Of a DNA stretch of 64,000 nt, positions 4,981 through 26,323 are shown one piece after another (the stretch's first letter is position 1; every line of letters begins with the position of its first letter). Below the pieces are notes generated by a model. The model was not told where the DNA came from. It made no database searches and saw nothing but the letters and a program-made list of their open reading frames with translations. Location: NCBI RefSeq assembly GCF_028368975.1, contig NZ_JAQNDM010000002.1, forward strand, positions 5,884,425 to 5,948,424, written 5' to 3'. Origin of the DNA: Stigmatella ashevillena. Its GTDB lineage: Bacteria; Myxococcota; Myxococcia; Myxococcales; Myxococcaceae. A program made the translations under genes and the position numbers.

Positions 4981-5059
4981 CAATTATGTCGATAATCGGT
5001 GAGATGAGGCAGCATATATCCTGCTTCATCACTCGAAGGGCGGTATATCGACATAATTG
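4981..5059. promoter_or_regulatory. Nested palindromic operator/promoter of the solitary AbiEi-like gene
   Basis: CAATTATGTCGATA (4981-4994) is repeated exactly in inverted orientation as TATCGACATAATTG (5046-5059). The right arm ends on the first base of the GTG start codon. Inside lies a second imperfect dyad, GATGAGGCAG / CTGCTTCATC, around an AT-rich centre (CATATATC) that could hold a -10 element. No Shine-Dalgarno sequence is seen before the start. AbiEi antitoxins are known to bind inverted repeats in their own promoters, so autoregulation is the natural inference. Confidence 0.6.
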
Positions 5060-6171
5060 TGAGCTTCGAGGCGGCGACCCTCCGTGACGGTTTCTGGAAG
5101 AGCCTCCCTTCGTTGCCCCGAGGGGTGGAGCTGGCTCGTCAGGACTCGCTGGTGGTCTCCCAGCATGGGCCCGGTGGGCAGGCTGTTTACGATCTGGCCC
5201 GGGTCTTGGTGCCGCAGGGGAGTGTGCCGGTGTTGGTGGCCTATCGGGCGCCTCTGGTGCCTGCGCTCGTGCCCCAACTGCGTAGACGGCTCTTGGAACT
5301 CGACGAGGATCTGAGGTTGCGTGCCTCCGCTGGACGGGGGCTGCCCGTGCCGCGCATTCCGATGATCGTCACGGACTCGGCCAGTGCGGGGGTGATCAGC
5401 GCTTGCGAGCGGGAGGATGTGGCCCTGGTGGATCTGCGAGGCACCCTGTTGCTGCGCTCTGAGGGCATCTTCGTCCGGGTCGTGGGACAGACTCCAGTTC
5501 AGCGGCGCTCTCGCGCACCAGTGTTCCATGGGAAGGGCTGTCGGCTGGTCAGAACCCTTCTGACCGCACCGGAGCAGATCCGGACCGCGCGGGAGCTCTC
5601 GGAGCAAGCGCAGACAAGTTACGCCTATACCCACGGAGTGCTCACGCAGCTCGAGCAAGATGGGTACTTGGTCCGTGCTTCCCGGAACACGGGCTTCCGA
5701 GTCCGTGACGCGGTGGGGCTCTTACGGGCTTGGGTGGAGAGTGGGGAGAAGACGGCCGTGGCCGCCGAGGGCTTCCATGCGCCTTCCACGATGCCCGAGA
5801 CGCTGCGGAGCGGTTACAAGGCGCTCGAAGAGCAGGGGATTCACTGCATCTTCACCTTGGCGAGTGGCCTGTTGCCGGAGGAGCGGTTTGTCTCGGGTCT
5901 GCCTCATGGGCTTTACCTGACGGGCTCCATCGAGCCTGTCGTCCAGGCATTGGAGCTCCGGCGGTTGACCCCGCATAATTTCTGGGTGTTGAGGCCCGAG
6001 GTCGCGGCGGAGACCGGCGTGGGAGGGGTGTATTCCTCGCCGCGCGCCTTGCCTCACGGTCCCGGTGTTTCGCTGCCGCAGCTGGCCGTGGATTTCCAGC
6101 ACAGTGGAGGTCGTGGAAAAGAGCAGGCGGAGGCCCTGGTCGAGCGCTTCGCCAGAGACTTGCCGCTCTGA
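5059..6171 (+). CDS. Solitary AbiEi-like winged-helix regulator (type IV antitoxin-like)
   Basis: This is a 370-residue protein. A central winged-helix segment (about residues 170-225; TARELSEQAQ then GVLTQLEQDGYLVRA) is followed by a C-terminal AbiEi-like half. The N-terminal 130 residues match in layout the nuclease-fold region of the protein at 22745-23812, including the strand VALVDLRGTLLL against VSWIDLAGNAHL. The ExK of that protein is absent here, so any nuclease activity is probably lost. No nucleotidyltransferase gene follows; the next gene is a carbonic-anhydrase-like protein. It may be an orphan antitoxin or an adapted regulator. The start abuts a 14-bp inverted repeat and may be leaderless. 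Confidence 0.65.
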   Translation: MSFEAATLRDGFWKSLPSLPRGVELARQDSLVVSQHGPGGQAVYDLARVLVPQGSVPVLVAYRAPLVPALVPQLRRRLLELDEDLRLRASAGRGLPVPRIPMIVTDSASAGVISACEREDVALVDLRGTLLLRSEGIFVRVVGQTPVQRRSRAPVFHGKGCRLVRTLLTAPEQIRTARELSEQAQTSYAYTHGVLTQLEQDGYLVRASRNTGFRVRDAVGLLRAWVESGEKTAVAAEGFHAPSTMPETLRSGYKALEEQGIHCIFTLASGLLPEERFVSGLPHGLYLTGSIEPVVQALELRRLTPHNFWVLRPEVAAETGVGGVYSSPRALPHGPGVSLPQLAVDFQHSGGRGKEQAEALVERFARDLPL

Positions 6172-17562: not shown

Positions 17563-18855
17563 ATGTTCCAGCCCCATATCAGCAAGCAGCAAGAGGATGT
17601 CTTCGCGCTCGCGGTCTTCGCGAATCTGTCGGATGGACTGCGCAGGAGCACCGAACCCGGCTGCGACATCGAGGAGAGGACGCTTGGAGCGCTCAACCGA
17701 GCACTCGTGAAGGCCAAACCGTTCATCGGTGGCTGGAACGTCGTGTGGGGCCCGAGTGTGTACCTGTTCAACTCGAGCGTGTTCGCCGTCAACACGATGT
17801 ATGTCGCGCAGAGCACCCTGGATCCGTCGCAGTACGTCGTCGCGATCGCGGGGACCAATATGACGTCGGTGTTCGACTGGATGGCCGAGGAGCTCCTCGT
17901 GGCCTTGCAGGTGCCCTGGAGCGGCGGGGCCGAGGCCTCCGGGGCCAAGATTGCCCTGGGGATCGCCAGCGGCTTGACGGTCCTTCAGGAGATGACGCCC
18001 TCGGGCCACCGGCCCGGGGCGGGCAAGACGCTGGCCGAGTTCCTGAAAACGCTCACCGATGCGAAGGTGAAGATCGATGTGACAGGCTTTGGGCTCGGTG
18101 GCGCGCTGGCCTCGACGGTGGCACTGTGGCTTGCCGACACGAAGGGCGTGCCGGGACATTGGGATCCCCAGGACAACGCTCAGCTCACCTGTCTGTCATT
18201 GGCGGCCCCGAGCGCGGGCAATGGCGCCTTCGCCGCCTACGCGGACCAGAAGCGGGGCCTCAAGATGGTCCGCTTCGCCAACGACCTGGACATTGTTACG
18301 CAGGCGTGGAGCGCGTCCTCGCTGGCGAAGATGGCCACGCTCTACAGCCCCATCATTCCCGGGACGGAGCCCATCCGGGCGCTGGTGGGGATGGCGGAGC
18401 AGACCACGCGGAAGGGGGACTACACCCAGGTCCAGGCCTTGGCGCCCCCGCTGATGGGGAGGGTGAAATACAACGAAGGGTTCATCACGGTGCCGCCCAG
18501 TCCGGGGGGACACTTCGTCGACTTCATCAAGCAGGTGGGCTACCAGCACATCGTCCCCTATTTCGACTGGTTCCATTTCAATCCGGGGTGGATGGAGGCG
18601 CTTCCTCCGGCATTCGAGGAGGACTCTCGTGCGCTGTTCGCGGAGCTGGCGCCAGGGGTCCGCCGCGCCCTGAAGGCGGCAGGAGTGCAACCGCCGGCGG
18701 AGCTTCCGGGGAAGAACGAGGGGGAGGGCCTGCGCACGCTCCAGGCGGGCCGCGAGTTGTACCCGGTGCCTCGGAGTGCCGAAGGGCCGGAAGCCGAGAA
18801 CCTCGTGAATGTCCTGGCCGCGGCGCTCAAGCGGCACGCGGCACACCGGAACTGA
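17563..18855 (+). CDS. Class-3-lipase-fold protein with the nucleophile serine replaced
   Basis: This is a 430-residue protein with AGAGGAAAG before the ATG at 17563. The fold follows fungal-type (class 3) lipases: the strand YVVAIAGTNMTSVFDW, the nucleophile elbow, the segment LSLAAPSAGN, and the Asp region FANDLDIVTQ. The elbow reads TGFGLGGALAS where active enzymes have GHSLGGA, so Ser is Gly and ordinary hydrolysis should be impossible. No signal peptide is seen. Fragments of its 3' end recur at 19995-20060 and 22438-22598, so this gene family has been copied and lost nearby. It might be a binding protein, or an immunity or toxin component; this is inference. Confidence 0.72.
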   Translation: MFQPHISKQQEDVFALAVFANLSDGLRRSTEPGCDIEERTLGALNRALVKAKPFIGGWNVVWGPSVYLFNSSVFAVNTMYVAQSTLDPSQYVVAIAGTNMTSVFDWMAEELLVALQVPWSGGAEASGAKIALGIASGLTVLQEMTPSGHRPGAGKTLAEFLKTLTDAKVKIDVTGFGLGGALASTVALWLADTKGVPGHWDPQDNAQLTCLSLAAPSAGNGAFAAYADQKRGLKMVRFANDLDIVTQAWSASSLAKMATLYSPIIPGTEPIRALVGMAEQTTRKGDYTQVQALAPPLMGRVKYNEGFITVPPSPGGHFVDFIKQVGYQHIVPYFDWFHFNPGWMEALPPAFEEDSRALFAELAPGVRRALKAAGVQPPAELPGKNEGEGLRTLQAGRELYPVPRSAEGPEAENLVNVLAAALKRHAAHRN

Positions 18856-19900: not shown

Positions 19901-19989
19901 GAGGGTACTCCGTCAGCACCCAGGCCCGCCACGGGACGGGTTCGGCTCCCACCTCCTTGCGTCCGGCGTACGCCGCGCACCGCTGGGCC
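19901..19989 (-). repeat. Relic copy of the 3' end of the 242-residue gene
   Basis: These 89 bases match 21669-21757, the 3' part of the neighbouring minus-strand gene, with only four differences and no gaps. The frame has no start, so this is a pseudogene fragment. It joins directly onto a fragment of the lipase-like gene at 19995, which marks a deletion junction. Confidence 0.85.
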
Positions 19990-21651: not shown

Positions 21652-22380
21652 TTACAATGCCGCGAAGGGAGGGTACTCCGTCAGCACCCAGGCCCGCCAC
21701 GGGACGGGTTCCGCGCCCACCTCCTCGCGCCCGGCGTACGCCGCGCACCGCTGGGCCAGGGCATGGTCATCGAACAGGCCGTGCGCGTTCGGCTGGGCGC
21801 TCAGCTTCTGTGCGAACACGCGCGCCAGGCCGTTGCACAGGGACGAGTGCAAGGTCCCGCCAACCTCCAGCCCGAGCACCTCCGAGCCCAGGCTCAGGCC
21901 GCCTTCCCGCGGTGGGAGGTGCAGTGCGAGGCACCGACGCAGCCCCAGCTCGCCCTCTCCAGGCGTCGGCTCCGTCTGACGCAGGAGGACATCGGCGTCT
22001 TCGCTGGAGAGTGCCAGGCCGAGAATGCAGGCATCACTGTCCTCGGGGACGAAGGTGGCACAGAACTCCCGTGCTCCTTCGAGGGTCTGGAAGAGGTTGG
22101 GCCATAGGAAGTCCTCGTCGAATCGTTGCGTCACCCAGTCCATGAGCTCGGCGAGCCGACCGGGTGGAATCCCGAAACGCGAGGCGGCTTCGCATCGCTC
22201 CGCCTCGTCGCAGCGGACCCACGCCAGGGCCCACGTGTCCGGAGCGATCTGGGCGAGGCATCCCGAGGCAGTCCGGATCACCGGCGGAAGGAGGCTCGCA
22301 TCCATGAAGGCCGTGCGGTCCACCGGGCGGGCAACGAGGTAGCCCGCGGACACCCGAAGAGAATTGTCAGAGCGCGTCAT
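21652..22380 (-). CDS. Accessory-island protein of unknown function (242 aa)
   Basis: I do not recognise this soluble protein of 242 residues. It begins MTRSDNSLRVSAGYLVARPV and is rich in Cys and acidic residues. The ATG at 22380 is preferred over one two codons upstream because similarity with the relic at 24671-24737 ends just past it. Parts of the gene recur at 19901-19989 (3' end) and 24671-24737 (5' end). In each place the flanking sequence is relic or island DNA. A partner or immunity role toward the lipase-like protein is possible, since relics of both are joined, but is not shown. Confidence 0.65.
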   Translation of the reverse strand: MTRSDNSLRVSAGYLVARPVDRTAFMDASLLPPVIRTASGCLAQIAPDTWALAWVRCDEAERCEAASRFGIPPGRLAELMDWVTQRFDEDFLWPNLFQTLEGAREFCATFVPEDSDACILGLALSSEDADVLLRQTEPTPGEGELGLRRCLALHLPPREGGLSLGSEVLGLEVGGTLHSSLCNGLARVFAQKLSAQPNAHGLFDDHALAQRCAAYAGREEVGAEPVPWRAWVLTEYPPFAAL

Positions 22381-22437
22381 GGACATGAGCAGACGGCTTC
22401 GTCCCGATGGGTCTGACCCATGCCCGAATTCGCCGCC

Positions 22438-22598
22438 ACATCGTCCCCTATTTCGACTGAGTCCATTTCAATCCGGGGTGGATGGAGGCGCTTCCTCCGG
22501 CATTCGAAGAGGACTCTCGTGCGCTGTTCGCGGAGCTGGCCCCGGACCCGGTGCCTCGGAGTGCCGAAGCCGGAAGCCGAGAACCTCGTGAATGTCCC
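22438..22598 (+). repeat. Relic of the lipase-like gene with internal deletion and nonsense codon
   Basis: The segment matches 18548-18650 and then 18767-18824 of the lipase-like gene; the 116 bases between are missing. A Trp codon of the parent has become TGA (GACTGAGTC against GACTGGTTC). It is therefore a dead fragment. The whole stretch 22381-22744 holds only this relic and the AT-rich leader of the AbiE-like operon. Confidence 0.85.
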
Positions 22599-22744
22599 GG
22601 CCTCTTACTTAAAGGGCGAGTCTTCACCAAGCAGTAAAAGGGCTCATTTAGTGAAGCCAAGGCCAATAAACCATTGAAATCTGGTGCTCTGTAAGCCAGC
22701 TTCATTAAAAGAGCCTGCTTTACTTGCGAGTGAAGATTGGGGTA

Positions 22745-23812
22745 ATGAGTGAAGGGGCTATGGAGCAGGCACTCGGGAGTGAAGCGCTTGGCGTGTTGGT
22801 GGACATCCTGGAGAAGCCCCTGCGTCTCATCAGAGACTCCTCCAGCGGAGGTTTTTCTGCCCAACGACATGTCGACCTCATCCTTGAGAGCGACCAGCAC
22901 TTGTTTCTGGTGGAGTGCAAGAGTTCCGCGAGTGTCCGCAGCATTGAGGCAGGAATCGAGCAGCTGAAAAGAGAGCGCTCGTACGTCAGCTACAAGCCAG
23001 CCCTTCCTGTCATTGCTGTGCCTTTCATGGGGGAAGTGGGCAAGCAGCTCTGCCGGTCGGCTTCCGTCTCATGGATTGATCTCGCGGGTAACGCCCATCT
23101 CCGGGGACCGCAGCTCCACATCCGCATTGAAGGACGCCCCAATCGGCATCGTAAACCAGGTCGCCCCAGCAATGTCTTCGCACCCAAGAGTGCCCGGGTG
23201 ACGCGGCGATTGCTGTTGGAGCCCACCCGGGCCTTCCGTCAGCGGGAACTCGCCCAGGAGACAGGGCTGGGGGAAGGATTCGTCAGCCGCATTGTCCGGC
23301 AACTGGAGACCGAGGGTCTTCTCTCACGAGAGCAGGGGGCCATTCGGGTCAAGAACCCCGGGCTGCTTTTGGATGCTTGGAGGGAGGCGTACTCGTTCAG
23401 CCACCATCACATTGTTCGAGGCCACATCCCGGCGCGATCACCTCAGATCCTGCTGAGTTCGCTCGCTGACTCGCTTCGAGAGCGGTCGATCCTCTATGCC
23501 GCCACGGGGCCTGCGTCCGCGTGGCTCCATGCGAAGTTCGCAGGGTTCCGAGTCGTAACGATTTTCCTCAAGGATATTGCCTTACTCTCCGCGAGCTCCT
23601 TGCTCAATTTCCGGCCGGAGGAGCGAGGCTCCAACGTCTGGATGATCGTTCCCGATGATTTAGGCGTCTTCGATGGGGCCGTAGACCTCGAAGGGATTCG
23701 TTGTGCCAGCGCTGTCCAGACCTACCTGGATCTGCTCGCCATGCCCGAAAGGGCGCAAGAGGCAGCGGATGAGTTACGTCAGAAGCGATTGTCCTGGAGC
23801 CTGCATGGCTGA
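22745..23812 (+). CDS. AbiEi-like antitoxin with N-terminal PD-(D/E)XK-type domain
   Basis: This protein of about 355 residues has in order: a restriction-endonuclease-like domain with RHVDLILES (Asp) and FLVECKSSASV (ExK), a winged helix (about residues 160-220; RQRELAQETGLGEGFVSRI and VRQLETEGLLSRE), and an AbiEi-type C-terminal half. Proteins of this architecture are the antitoxin partners of AbiEii nucleotidyltransferases in type IV toxin-antitoxin systems. The intact D...ExK suggests that the domain may still cut DNA, unlike the paralogue at 5059. Several starts are possible (TTG 22724, GTG 22730, ATG 22745). It overlaps the toxin gene by 8 bp. The leader is AT-rich compared with the surroundings. 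Confidence 0.72.
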   Translation: MSEGAMEQALGSEALGVLVDILEKPLRLIRDSSSGGFSAQRHVDLILESDQHLFLVECKSSASVRSIEAGIEQLKRERSYVSYKPALPVIAVPFMGEVGKQLCRSASVSWIDLAGNAHLRGPQLHIRIEGRPNRHRKPGRPSNVFAPKSARVTRRLLLEPTRAFRQRELAQETGLGEGFVSRIVRQLETEGLLSREQGAIRVKNPGLLLDAWREAYSFSHHHIVRGHIPARSPQILLSSLADSLRERSILYAATGPASAWLHAKFAGFRVVTIFLKDIALLSASSLLNFRPEERGSNVWMIVPDDLGVFDGAVDLEGIRCASAVQTYLDLLAMPERAQEAADELRQKRLSWSLHG

Positions 23813-24652
23813 GAAGCCCCAGACGCGCGCAGGTTATCCGGCTGATCTGGCCGAACTCGCTCGAGCCACCTGTCTCTATGTGGCGACCATTCTGGGCGAT
23901 CTCATCGAGGAGATAACAGTTGTCGGTGGACTCGTTCCCTCTCTGCTCATCTCCGCGGGAGATGCAGATGATTCAGTGGAAGCGCACGTCGGAACCCTGG
24001 ACCTGGACCTTGGCCTGTCGATCACGGTGTTCGATGAGTCGCGCTATCAGGAGATCGCTGAGCGGCTGAGGGGCGCGGGCTTCACTCAGGCCCCGAATGC
24101 GAAGGGACGGCTTTCTCGCCAGACGTGGAGCATTGATACCACTCAGGGGCGGATGACGCTGGACTTCCTGATCCCCCCACGCTCCCGACGGACCAGCCCG
24201 GCAAGCTGCGTGACCTTGAGGGGGACTTCGCAGCCATCATCATGCCGGGGCTCCATCTGGCGTTCATGGATCGCCAACGTGTGGACCTGAGCGGCATCAC
24301 GATCCGGCAAGAACGCGCCCAGCGCAGCATCTGGGTATGCGGCGCGGGTGCCTTCATCATCCTCAAAGCGCTGGCGTTCAAATTTCGGGGAACCCACAAG
24401 GACGCCTACGATCTGTTCTACGTCCTCAAGTATTTCGGACGAGGCGTGGAGGACGTTGTCCAACGGACTCGGCCTCTCTTGCAGGACAATTATTGCGTCG
24501 AGGCACTCGCACTTCTGCGCCGGGATTTTTCGACCCACGATTCCCTCGGCCCGAGAAGGGTCGCGCACTTCCTCAGGGGAGCTCCTGCCGACGACATTCA
24601 GGCCGACGTCGTCAGCTTCGTGAGTCTGTTCCTGGAGAGACTCGAGAGGTAA
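23805..24652 (+). pseudogene. AbiEii-type nucleotidyltransferase toxin, frameshifted at a C6 run
   Basis: The frame from ATG 23805 encodes the nucleotidyltransferase core: ITVVGGLVPSLLIS, then TLDLDLGLS (the DxD). After DFLIPP it leaves the conserved frame and ends at 24290. The -1 frame continues the family sequence to 24652, including KALAFKFRGTHKDAYDLFYV, the AbiEii/type IV toxin signature. One extra C in the six-C run at 24173-24178 would restore a 282-residue enzyme. The codons read ATC CCC CCA, giving the heptamer C-CCC-CCA. Inactivation, a sequencing error or programmed -1 slippage are all possible. AbiEii toxins transfer nucleotides to tRNA or similar targets. Confidence 0.7.
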
Positions 24653-24670
24653 GAGACTGTTTTGTCAGTA

Positions 24671-24737
24671 CGGTCCACCGGGCGGGCAACGAGGTAGCCC
24701 GCAGGAACCCGAAGGGAATTGTCAGGGCGCGTCATGG
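24671..24737 (-). repeat. Relic copy of the 5' end of the 242-residue gene
   Basis: The 67 bases match 22316-22382 with a handful of substitutions and no gaps, including the start codon. The reading frame fails soon after. This relic marks the right border of the island; the next gene is the GH43 protein. Confidence 0.82.
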
Positions 24738-24826
24738 CCTGGGTTGGACGCCTTCGCGTCGATTCGTCTGACCGTGTCATGGGTTCTCCGCTTTTCTTGG
24801 TAAAGGGAGAGTTCTAGAGTGACTGG

Positions 24827-24874: not shown

Positions 24875-26323
24875 GTGAACATGACGAAGCGAATGATGCT
24901 GCTTGGAATCTGCGTTCTGCCTCTGGCGGCCATGGCCTCCGTCACCGTGTCGGGCCCCAGCGTTGCCGCCACGAGCGTGACGATCAACAACGGACCGGTC
25001 TGGTACGACACGACGGGTGGAACGATTCAGGCCCACGGAGGTTCCGTCATCAAGGTGGGCGCCACGTACTATTGGATTGGCGAAGACAAGATCCACAACG
25101 CGGCGTCGTTCAAGAATGTCGTGTGTTACTCCTCGCCCGATTTGAAGAACTGGAAGTGGATCAGCTATCCGCTGAAGCCGAGTTCTCATGCGGAGCTGGC
25201 GAGCAGCAAGATCGAGCGGCCCAAGGTCATCTACAACGCGACGACCGGCAAGTACGTCATGTGGATGCATTACGAGAACGCCGCGGACTACTCCCTGGGC
25301 CGCGTTGCCGTCGCCTCCAGCACCTCGGTCTGCGGCAGCTACACGTACCACGGCAGCTTCCGGCCGCTCGGCTACGAGTCCAGGGACATGACGGTGTTCA
25401 AGGATGACGACGGCAGCGCCTACCTGATGTCCGCTTCGAACTCCGGGACGGGAACGAACGGCTCCCTCGCCTCTTTCAAGCTGACGAGCGACTACTTGAA
25501 CGTCTCGACGTTCCTGGGCTGGGTGGCCGAGAATGGGCACCGCGAGGCCCCCGCGATCGCCAAGCAGGGCGGACGGTATTTCCTGATTACCTCGGGGGCC
25601 TCTGGCTGGTACCCGAACCAGGCGAAATATCTGACGGCGACCTCGATGAACGGACCGTGGTCGGCCGCACAGAACCTGGGCAACACCTCGACGTTCTATT
25701 CGCAGTCCGCCTTCATCCTGCCCGTGCAGGGCACGGCCGCGACGACCTACCTCTATATGGGCGACCGCTGGAACTCGAGCTTGCTCGGAGACTCCCGCTA
25801 CATCTGGTTGCCGCTGACCCTGAACGGCGCGAACGGAACCGCTTCCCTGGAGTGGCGCAGCAGTTGGAGCCTCGATGCCGAGACCGGGACTGTGTCGTCT
25901 CCGAGCCTCGTCAACCATGCGCTGGGTAAACCGGCGACGGCCAGCTCCACGGCTTCCGGTTTTGCCGCGAGCCGGGCGAACGACGGGAACTATCAGGCCG
26001 AGTGGAAGGCGTCCGGCGTCACCTGGCCCTCGTGGTGGCAGGTGGATCTCGGCGCGGCCCGCAGCATCCAGGAGGTCAATGTCTCGTGGTTTTTGTACAA
26101 CGGCTCGGAGGCCTATTACCAATACCGGATCGAATACAGCTCGAACGGCACGAGCTGGGTGACGATCGACCGGACCTCGAACAAGACGTATGGGTTCACG
26201 ACGGATGCGGTGAACTTCAGTGCCCGCTATGTCCGCATCGTGCTCGTCAACGCGGTGCTGTGGAACAATCCGAACAACTGGTACACGCCCATCCTCTATG
26301 AGGTTCAATTGCTCGGAACCTGA
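24875..26323 (+). CDS. Secreted GH43-like glycosidase with F5/8 type C (discoidin) domain
   Basis: This is a 482-residue protein with a signal peptide. Residues about 35-335 form a five-bladed propeller of GH43 type: QAHGGSVIKVGATYYWIGED, SSKIERPKVIYN, YESRDMTVFKDDDGSAYL and HREAPAIAKQGGRYFLI. This pattern is closest to exo-beta-galactosidase-like GH43 members. Residues about 345-482 are a discoidin/CBM32 domain (ALGKPATASS, WWQVDLGAARSIQEV, SARYVRIVLV). The enzyme probably binds and trims plant or microbial polysaccharide outside the cell. GTG at 24875 fits best with GGAAGGGG upstream. A lac-operator-like palindrome precedes it. Confidence 0.85.
   Translation: MNMTKRMMLLGICVLPLAAMASVTVSGPSVAATSVTINNGPVWYDTTGGTIQAHGGSVIKVGATYYWIGEDKIHNAASFKNVVCYSSPDLKNWKWISYPLKPSSHAELASSKIERPKVIYNATTGKYVMWMHYENAADYSLGRVAVASSTSVCGSYTYHGSFRPLGYESRDMTVFKDDDGSAYLMSASNSGTGTNGSLASFKLTSDYLNVSTFLGWVAENGHREAPAIAKQGGRYFLITSGASGWYPNQAKYLTATSMNGPWSAAQNLGNTSTFYSQSAFILPVQGTAATTYLYMGDRWNSSLLGDSRYIWLPLTLNGANGTASLEWRSSWSLDAETGTVSSPSLVNHALGKPATASSTASGFAASRANDGNYQAEWKASGVTWPSWWQVDLGAARSIQEVNVSWFLYNGSEAYYQYRIEYSSNGTSWVTIDRTSNKTYGFTTDAVNFSARYVRIVLVNAVLWNNPNNWYTPILYEVQLLGT

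What the first reader, a model, noticed from the sequence alone, without database searches (positions are those of the whole stretch)
22745..24652. AbiE-like pair whose antitoxin carries an intact PD-(D/E)XK-type motif and whose toxin is frameshifted
The antitoxin-like protein has D...ExK (VDLIL, VECKS) before its winged helix, so it could be a nuclease-regulator fusion. The toxin's conserved frame changes by -1 exactly at a C6 run read as ATC CCC CCA. A toxin that is only made by slippage would be an unusual control; plain inactivation is the conservative view.
Basis: partly seen in the sequence, partly recalled or inferred. Interest (0 to 1): 0.62.

Follow-up and report, generated by a model that had tools for sequence, protein, structure and literature searches.

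The report
AbiE-type toxin-antitoxin pair, toxin frameshifted
This is a known kind of bacterial growth-control gene pair (AbiE toxin-antitoxin) whose toxin gene carries a private one-base frameshift, so it is probably dead; the only unusual part is that the antitoxin begins with a domain shaped like a DNA-cutting enzyme, a family-wide feature that I did not find described.

Summary
Both observations are real. (1) Window 22745-23812 is an AbiEi_2/COG4861-type antitoxin. Its N-terminal ~95 residues are predicted with high confidence as a PD-(D/E)XK nuclease core, closest to NucS/EndoMS, Holliday-junction resolvases and restriction enzymes. D44, E57 and K59 align with the D...ExK of Hjc. The full triad is present in 42 of 78 relatives but was lost repeatedly: the fold is general, catalysis optional or vestigial. 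A winged helix and an NTase-like antitoxin domain follow, as known for AbiEi. (2) The AbiEii-type toxin (23805-24652) shifts frame once, at a C6 run. The nearest relative reads C7 and is open; no other relative has such a run, and no RNA structure stands out. Programmed slippage is not supported. In 400 kb of the same assembly, 233 coding C/G runs of 6-8 keep frame, so this is an isolated, recent lesion, likely a real mutation; a single-site error is not excluded. The pair, with a conserved four-half-site operator over the start codon, is a ~1.95-kb cassette in a ~2.5-kb stretch absent from three congeners. Verdict: known kind of system; the untested nuclease fold is the only novel lead.

The parts
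22700..22754 (.). Operator-like array of four half-sites CTTCATT / CTTTACT / AGTGAAG / AGTGAAG (22700-22706, 22718-22724, 22729-22735, 22748-22754) over the antitoxin start codon
   Evidence: Start spacing 18-11-19 here, 18-11-18 in L002 and L021; family-wide upstream palindromes in 35 of 79 loci against about 4 expected
22745..23812 (+). Antitoxin/autorepressor gene, AbiEi_2 (COG4861) type, 355 aa
   Evidence: ORF; AbiEi_2 in 58 of 78 relatives; conserved order with the toxin gene
22745..23134 (+). N-terminal PD-(D/E)XK-fold domain (residues 1-130; core 3-92); D44 22874-22876, E57 22913-22915, K59 22919-22921
   Evidence: Model pLDDT 91.9, alpha-beta-beta-beta-alpha-beta order; Foldseek to NucS, EndoMS, Hjc-like, R.BspD6I and viral nucleases; Hjc by profile
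23177..23353 (+). Winged helix-turn-helix (residues about 145-203)
   Evidence: HTH_Crp_2 and MarR matches; IclR/MarR structures
23357..23794 (+). C-terminal NTase-like antitoxin domain (residues about 205-350)
   Evidence: Foldseek to TM1012, LnuA, ANT(2'')-Ia and MenT1; same entries as reported for AbiEi in PMC7319586
23805..24290 (+). Toxin gene as it reads: N-terminal part of an AbiEii-type nucleotidyltransferase (GG, TxDxD and D120 motifs), then out of frame to a stop at 24288-24290
   Evidence: alignment with intact relatives
24173..24178 (+). C6 run where the reading frame changes
24179..24652 (+). Rest of the toxin in the -1 frame, with the K and KDAYD motifs
22700..24653 (.). Cassette (operator plus two genes) shared with G033, 77% identical, inside a stretch missing from congeners

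Best explanation
A horizontally acquired AbiE-type toxin-antitoxin cassette of the COG4861-COG4849 kind (AbiEi_2 + AbiEii). The antitoxin has three domains: a PD-(D/E)XK-fold domain, a winged helix, and an NTase-like antitoxin domain. It most likely binds the four-half-site operator over its own start codon and represses the operon. By analogy with MenAT/AbiE it neutralises the NTase toxin through the C-terminal domain. In this strain a recent one-base loss in a C run cuts the toxin before its K...KDxxD motif, so the toxin is probably inactive and the antitoxin persists as a repressor. Shown here: gene pair, predicted fold, operator-like sites, frameshift, insertion. Inferred: repression, antitoxicity, loss of toxicity. 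Unknown: whether D44/E57/K59 cut anything.
For: Family assignment of both genes; conserved gene order; folds; conserved operator-like sites; the relative with C7 is open and no conserved slippery site exists; the HMM finds one lesion here and none at homopolymers in 400 kb; the rest of the toxin evolves as in intact relatives, so the lesion is recent; three congeners lack the stretch; toxins are broken in 12 other relatives.
Against: P0001 alone is below the AbiEi_2 cut-off (13 against 21 bits). The lesion rests on one assembly without reads. Toxicity, repression and neutralisation are untested for this subfamily here. D, E and K stand out as conserved in most relatives, which a mere binding fold does not need.
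Confidence: 0.75

Rival explanations
1. The frameshift is a single sequencing or assembly error and the toxin gene is intact in the organism.
For: C runs are classic error sites; the nearest relative has one C more; both toxin halves are under normal purifying selection.
Against: No homopolymer-linked frameshift in 400 kb of the same assembly with 233 coding C/G runs of 6-8 in frame, detector power 113/153.
Confidence: 0.3
2. The full toxin is made at a low level by ribosomal or transcriptional slippage on the C6 run, as a control of the toxin dose.
For: The run C CCC CCA allows a -1 slip and the downstream frame is open to the true stop with normal constraint.
Against: L002 and the other intact relatives read in one frame; no other relative has a run of six or more; downstream RNA z-score -0.48; no Shine-Dalgarno-like stimulator is seen upstream (sequence).
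Confidence: 0.04
3. The N-terminal domain is an active PD-(D/E)XK nuclease, so the antitoxin is also a DNA-cutting effector or processes DNA at its operator.
For: Fold; D, E and K among the best conserved residues of the domain; full triad in 42 of 78; QxxxY mostly together with the triad; plasmid relatives keep D...(D/E)xK and QLRxY.
Against: The triad has been lost at least 9 and up to 18 times with the gene pair kept; losses not detectably coupled (low power); the window protein lacks the Y of QxxxY.
Confidence: 0.2
4. The N-terminal PD-(D/E)XK fold is a vestigial nuclease that now only helps the winged helix bind its long operator or couples the antitoxin to DNA damage.
For: Repeated loss of the triad with retention of the domain; a long operator with four half-sites; solitary paralogue 5059-6171 without the triad and without a toxin.
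Against: Better-than-neighbour conservation of D/E/K in the majority.
Confidence: 0.6

Closest known systems
AbiE, COG4861-COG4849 branch (AbiEi_2 PF09952 + AbiEii PF08843; M. tuberculosis Rv0837c/MenA2 is listed as COG4861 in PMC7319586)
   Same: Gene order, families, NTase toxin motifs, winged helix, NTase-like antitoxin domain, upstream palindromes
   Different: Here the toxin is frameshifted; an N-terminal PD-(D/E)XK fold precedes the winged helix and was not described for this branch in the papers searched
AbiE of Streptococcus agalactiae (COG5340 AbiEi + COG2253 AbiEii)
   Same: Two-gene order, autorepressing wHTH antitoxin with an adenylyltransferase-like C-terminal domain, NTase toxin (PMC3985639, PMC7319586)
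   Different: AbiEi there has two domains and no nuclease-like domain; COG5340 and COG4861 share no sequence identity (PMC3985639)
MenAT1/MenAT3 of M. tuberculosis
   Same: Toxin fold and an S/T two residues before the first catalytic D; antitoxin-induced auto-phosphorylation is a possible mode (PMC11375011)
   Different: Antitoxins of other families; mechanism not tested here
Archaeal Holliday-junction resolvase Hjc/Hje and NucS/EndoMS
   Same: PD-(D/E)XK core; D and ExK align
   Different: Not fused to a wHTH antitoxin; sequence similarity marginal; no activity shown here

Membership tests
AbiE type (AbiEi_2-AbiEii) toxin-antitoxin | Toxin is a DUF1814/AbiEii NTase with GG, TxDxD and K...KDxxD motifs | tested here: met
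   AbiEii in 32 of 61 relatives; motifs invariant in A4 and present across the two halves; MenT folds
AbiE type (AbiEi_2-AbiEii) toxin-antitoxin | Antitoxin with wHTH and AbiEi antitoxin domain encoded just upstream | tested here: met
   P0001 itself is below the AbiEi_2 cut-off, its family is above it
AbiE type (AbiEi_2-AbiEii) toxin-antitoxin | Autorepression through inverted repeats in the promoter | tested here: inconclusive
   Conserved repeats present; binding not testable here
AbiE type (AbiEi_2-AbiEii) toxin-antitoxin | Toxin stops growth and antitoxin rescues | not testable with these tools
   Needs a kill/rescue assay
AbiE type (AbiEi_2-AbiEii) toxin-antitoxin | Intact toxin gene | tested here: not met
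   Frame change at 24173-24178; this copy counts as a decayed member
PD-(D/E)XK nuclease superfamily | Alpha-beta-beta-beta-alpha-beta core | tested here: met
PD-(D/E)XK nuclease superfamily | D at the second strand and (D/E)xK in the third | tested here: met
   D44, E57, K59; lost in 36 of 78 relatives
PD-(D/E)XK nuclease superfamily | Metal-dependent phosphodiester cleavage | not testable with these tools
   Needs a biochemical assay
Programmed -1 frameshifting gene | Slippery heptamer conserved among relatives | tested here: not met
   Relatives read in one frame; no other run of six or more
Programmed -1 frameshifting gene | Downstream stimulatory RNA structure | tested here: not met
   z -0.48, 63 of 200 shuffles fold at least as well; pseudoknots not tested

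The most novel reading that the evidence does not exclude
COG4861-type AbiE antitoxins with an intact D...ExK are active nucleases, so a toxin-antitoxin repressor doubles as a DNA-cutting defence effector; this strain, with its toxin broken, would keep only the nuclease-repressor half.
Probability: 0.2. Interest if true: 0.72.

Novelty: new member of a known kind. Interest (0 to 1): 0.36.

Why it matters
AbiE is described as the fourth most abundant phage-defence system (PMC11375011), yet its COG4861 antitoxins are little studied. If their N-terminal domain is a nuclease, the antitoxin would not be a passive neutraliser. Because natural relatives with intact and with lost triads exist side by side, the question can be tested directly. 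The frameshift itself teaches little beyond ordinary decay of a toxin gene.

Tried and rejected
Programmed frameshifting: rejected (no conserved site, no structure). Assembly-wide homopolymer error: no sign of it in 400 kb; a first run of the detector had penalties that made direct switches impossible and is void. Common origin of the antitoxin C-terminal domain and the toxin by profile comparison: no match. Coupled loss of D, E and K by independent pairs: too few pairs to tell. Phage-borne close relatives: none in the phage records, two in viral contigs. Pfam Hjc in the same genome at E <= 0.001: none. One search used a made-up 60-mer by mistake and its empty result means nothing. Literature for an N-terminal nuclease fold in AbiEi_2/COG4861: nothing found in the open-access library, which is no proof of absence.

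Full report
What is there. Window 22745-23812 (+) encodes a 355-aa protein and 23805-24652 (+) a second gene that overlaps it by 8 nt. The host is a myxobacterium: the window is bases 5884425-5948424 of a 10.0-Mb contig (header), and same-family relatives include a genome that also appears as an Archangiaceae MAG, with Corallococcus next.

The pair. The family scan of 78 antitoxin relatives gives winged-helix families in nearly all and AbiEi_2 in 58 (best 3.2e-11); of 61 toxin relatives 32 match AbiEii (best 2.3e-7). P0001 alone stays below the AbiEi_2 cut-off. An intact toxin directly follows the antitoxin in 63 of 83 loci. NCBI-annotated plasmid relatives at about 30-33% identity carry the names AbiEi antitoxin and AbiEii/AbiGii toxin; one lies next to a DUF4297 anti-phage-associated protein. 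Dy et al. 2014 (PMC3985639) already noted COG4861-COG4849 pairs. The toxin model (relative L002, pLDDT 92.5) matches MenT1 and MenT3/TglT in the PDB. Its T64 stands two residues before D66, as S78 does before D80 in MenT3 (peptide printed in PMC7205606). A MenAT-like neutralisation by antitoxin-induced auto-phosphorylation (PMC11375011) is therefore possible; this is inference.

The N-terminal domain. AlphaFold2 with 78 relatives gives pLDDT 91.9. Residues 3-92 run helix-strand-strand-strand-helix-strand, the PD-(D/E)XK core, with D44 just before the second strand and E57/K59 at the end of the third. Foldseek finds NucS (2vld), EndoMS, an Hjc-like resolvase and R.BspD6I in the PDB (best E 1.9e-3, none below 0.001), and phage restriction endonucleases and resolvases in BFVD. 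By sequence alone, a profile of the N-terminal domain ranks the archaeal resolvases 1gef and 1ob8 first and second of 177,635 PDB sequences, with D and ExK aligned, although at E 0.24 and 0.58. That profile was built from the 42 triad-bearing relatives, so the alignment of those residues is partly expected. Pfam Hjc matches the window domain at E 0.0088, below its cut-off, and about half of the 20 weak Pfam families in this set are PD-(D/E)XK families. Several weak lines agree with one strong fold prediction.

Is it a working nuclease? D is present in 66, E or D in 63 and K in 53 of 78; the whole triad in 42. In an otherwise fast-evolving domain these three are among the best conserved positions, and a RecB-like QxxxY appears in 11 relatives, 10 of them with the triad. 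Against that, the triad changed state 9-18 times on the tree, and losses of D, E and K are not detectably coupled once kinship is counted (low power). I judge a DNA-handling role likely and catalysis open. The C-terminal domain matches adenylyltransferases 4fo1 and 5kqj, the same entries that S. agalactiae AbiEi gave in DALI (PMC7319586), so that part is known AbiEi anatomy.

The operator. Over the antitoxin start lie four half-sites of the type CTTYAYT/AGTGAAG with start spacing 18-11-19; L002 and L021 have 18-11-18. An upstream palindrome in the top 5% of shuffles occurs in 35 of 79 family loci, about 4 expected (simple base shuffles). This supports autorepression, the known habit of AbiEi.

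The frameshift. The toxin frame changes by -1 at C6 (24173-24178). L002 has C7 and L021 has no run; both are open. No other relative has a run of six or more. The downstream RNA is not unusually structured. Both halves evolve under purifying selection as in intact relatives (dN/dS 0.15 and 0.24, against 0.17 and 0.25 between the intact ones), so the lesion is very recent, or an error. A codon-usage HMM finds it as the only frameshift in the window and none at a homopolymer in 400 kb of the same assembly, where 233 coding C/G runs of 6-8 keep frame; it detects 113 of 153 simulated losses. The assembly is thus not generally faulty, but with thousands of such runs in the genome a single error remains possible. 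The truncated product lacks the K...KDxxD motif, which I equate with the motif IV needed for AbiEii toxicity in Dy et al. 2014, so it should be inactive (inference). Toxins are broken in 12 other relatives, mostly metagenome-assembled genomes in which errors may also contribute. No second copy of the toxin was found in this genome.

The insertion. In G001, G004 and G005 the gene at 21652-22386 lies next to the gene that starts at 24875 (with a deletion in that gene in G005), so about 2.5 kb are extra in the window. A 106-nt direct repeat (82%) flanks the extra stretch. The stretch shared with G033 is 22700-24653: operator plus two genes. A mobile cassette is the simplest reading; the mechanism was not determined.

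Verdict. The locus is a new member of a known kind with a recently broken toxin. The PD-(D/E)XK fold of COG4861 antitoxins, undescribed in what I could search, is the point worth a bench test.

Noticed in passing
window 5059-6171 (+): Solitary AbiEi_2-like paralogue (28% identity, triad lost) with no toxin gene beside it; similar solitary genes occur in other genomes of the family (L013, L015, L016, L017), as if domesticated.
   Followed up: partly
window 22313-22418 and 24668-24773: 106-nt direct repeat, 82% identical, a second and diverged copy of the 5' end of gene 21652-22386, flanking the inserted stretch.
   Followed up: partly
window 18547-18819, 19901-19989, 21669-21757, 22437-22602: Repeated fragments of neighbouring genes upstream of the pair: the region looks like a locally duplicating gene array that also varies among congeners.
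   Followed up: no
L159 (G005:C1:177000-181500): The counterpart of window gene 24875-26323 has lost an internal stretch in G005 (window 25404-25747 missing) while it is whole in G001 and G004.
   Followed up: no
L038 and L077: A second antitoxin-like gene lies about 2-3 kb downstream of the first in these metagenome loci.
   Followed up: no
L163-L166 (plasmids of Variovorax, Sphingobium, Mesorhizobium, Cupriavidus): Plasmid relatives keep D...(D/E)xK, and all but Sphingobium's exact form keep Q-L-R-x-Y, a RecB-like signature, in annotated AbiEi antitoxins; possibly better candidates for a nuclease assay than the window protein.
   Followed up: partly
L004, L024, L028, L040, L042, L047, L048, L057, L063, L074, L090, L100: Toxin genes broken or truncated beside an intact antitoxin in 12 relatives, mostly metagenome-assembled genomes.
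   Followed up: partly
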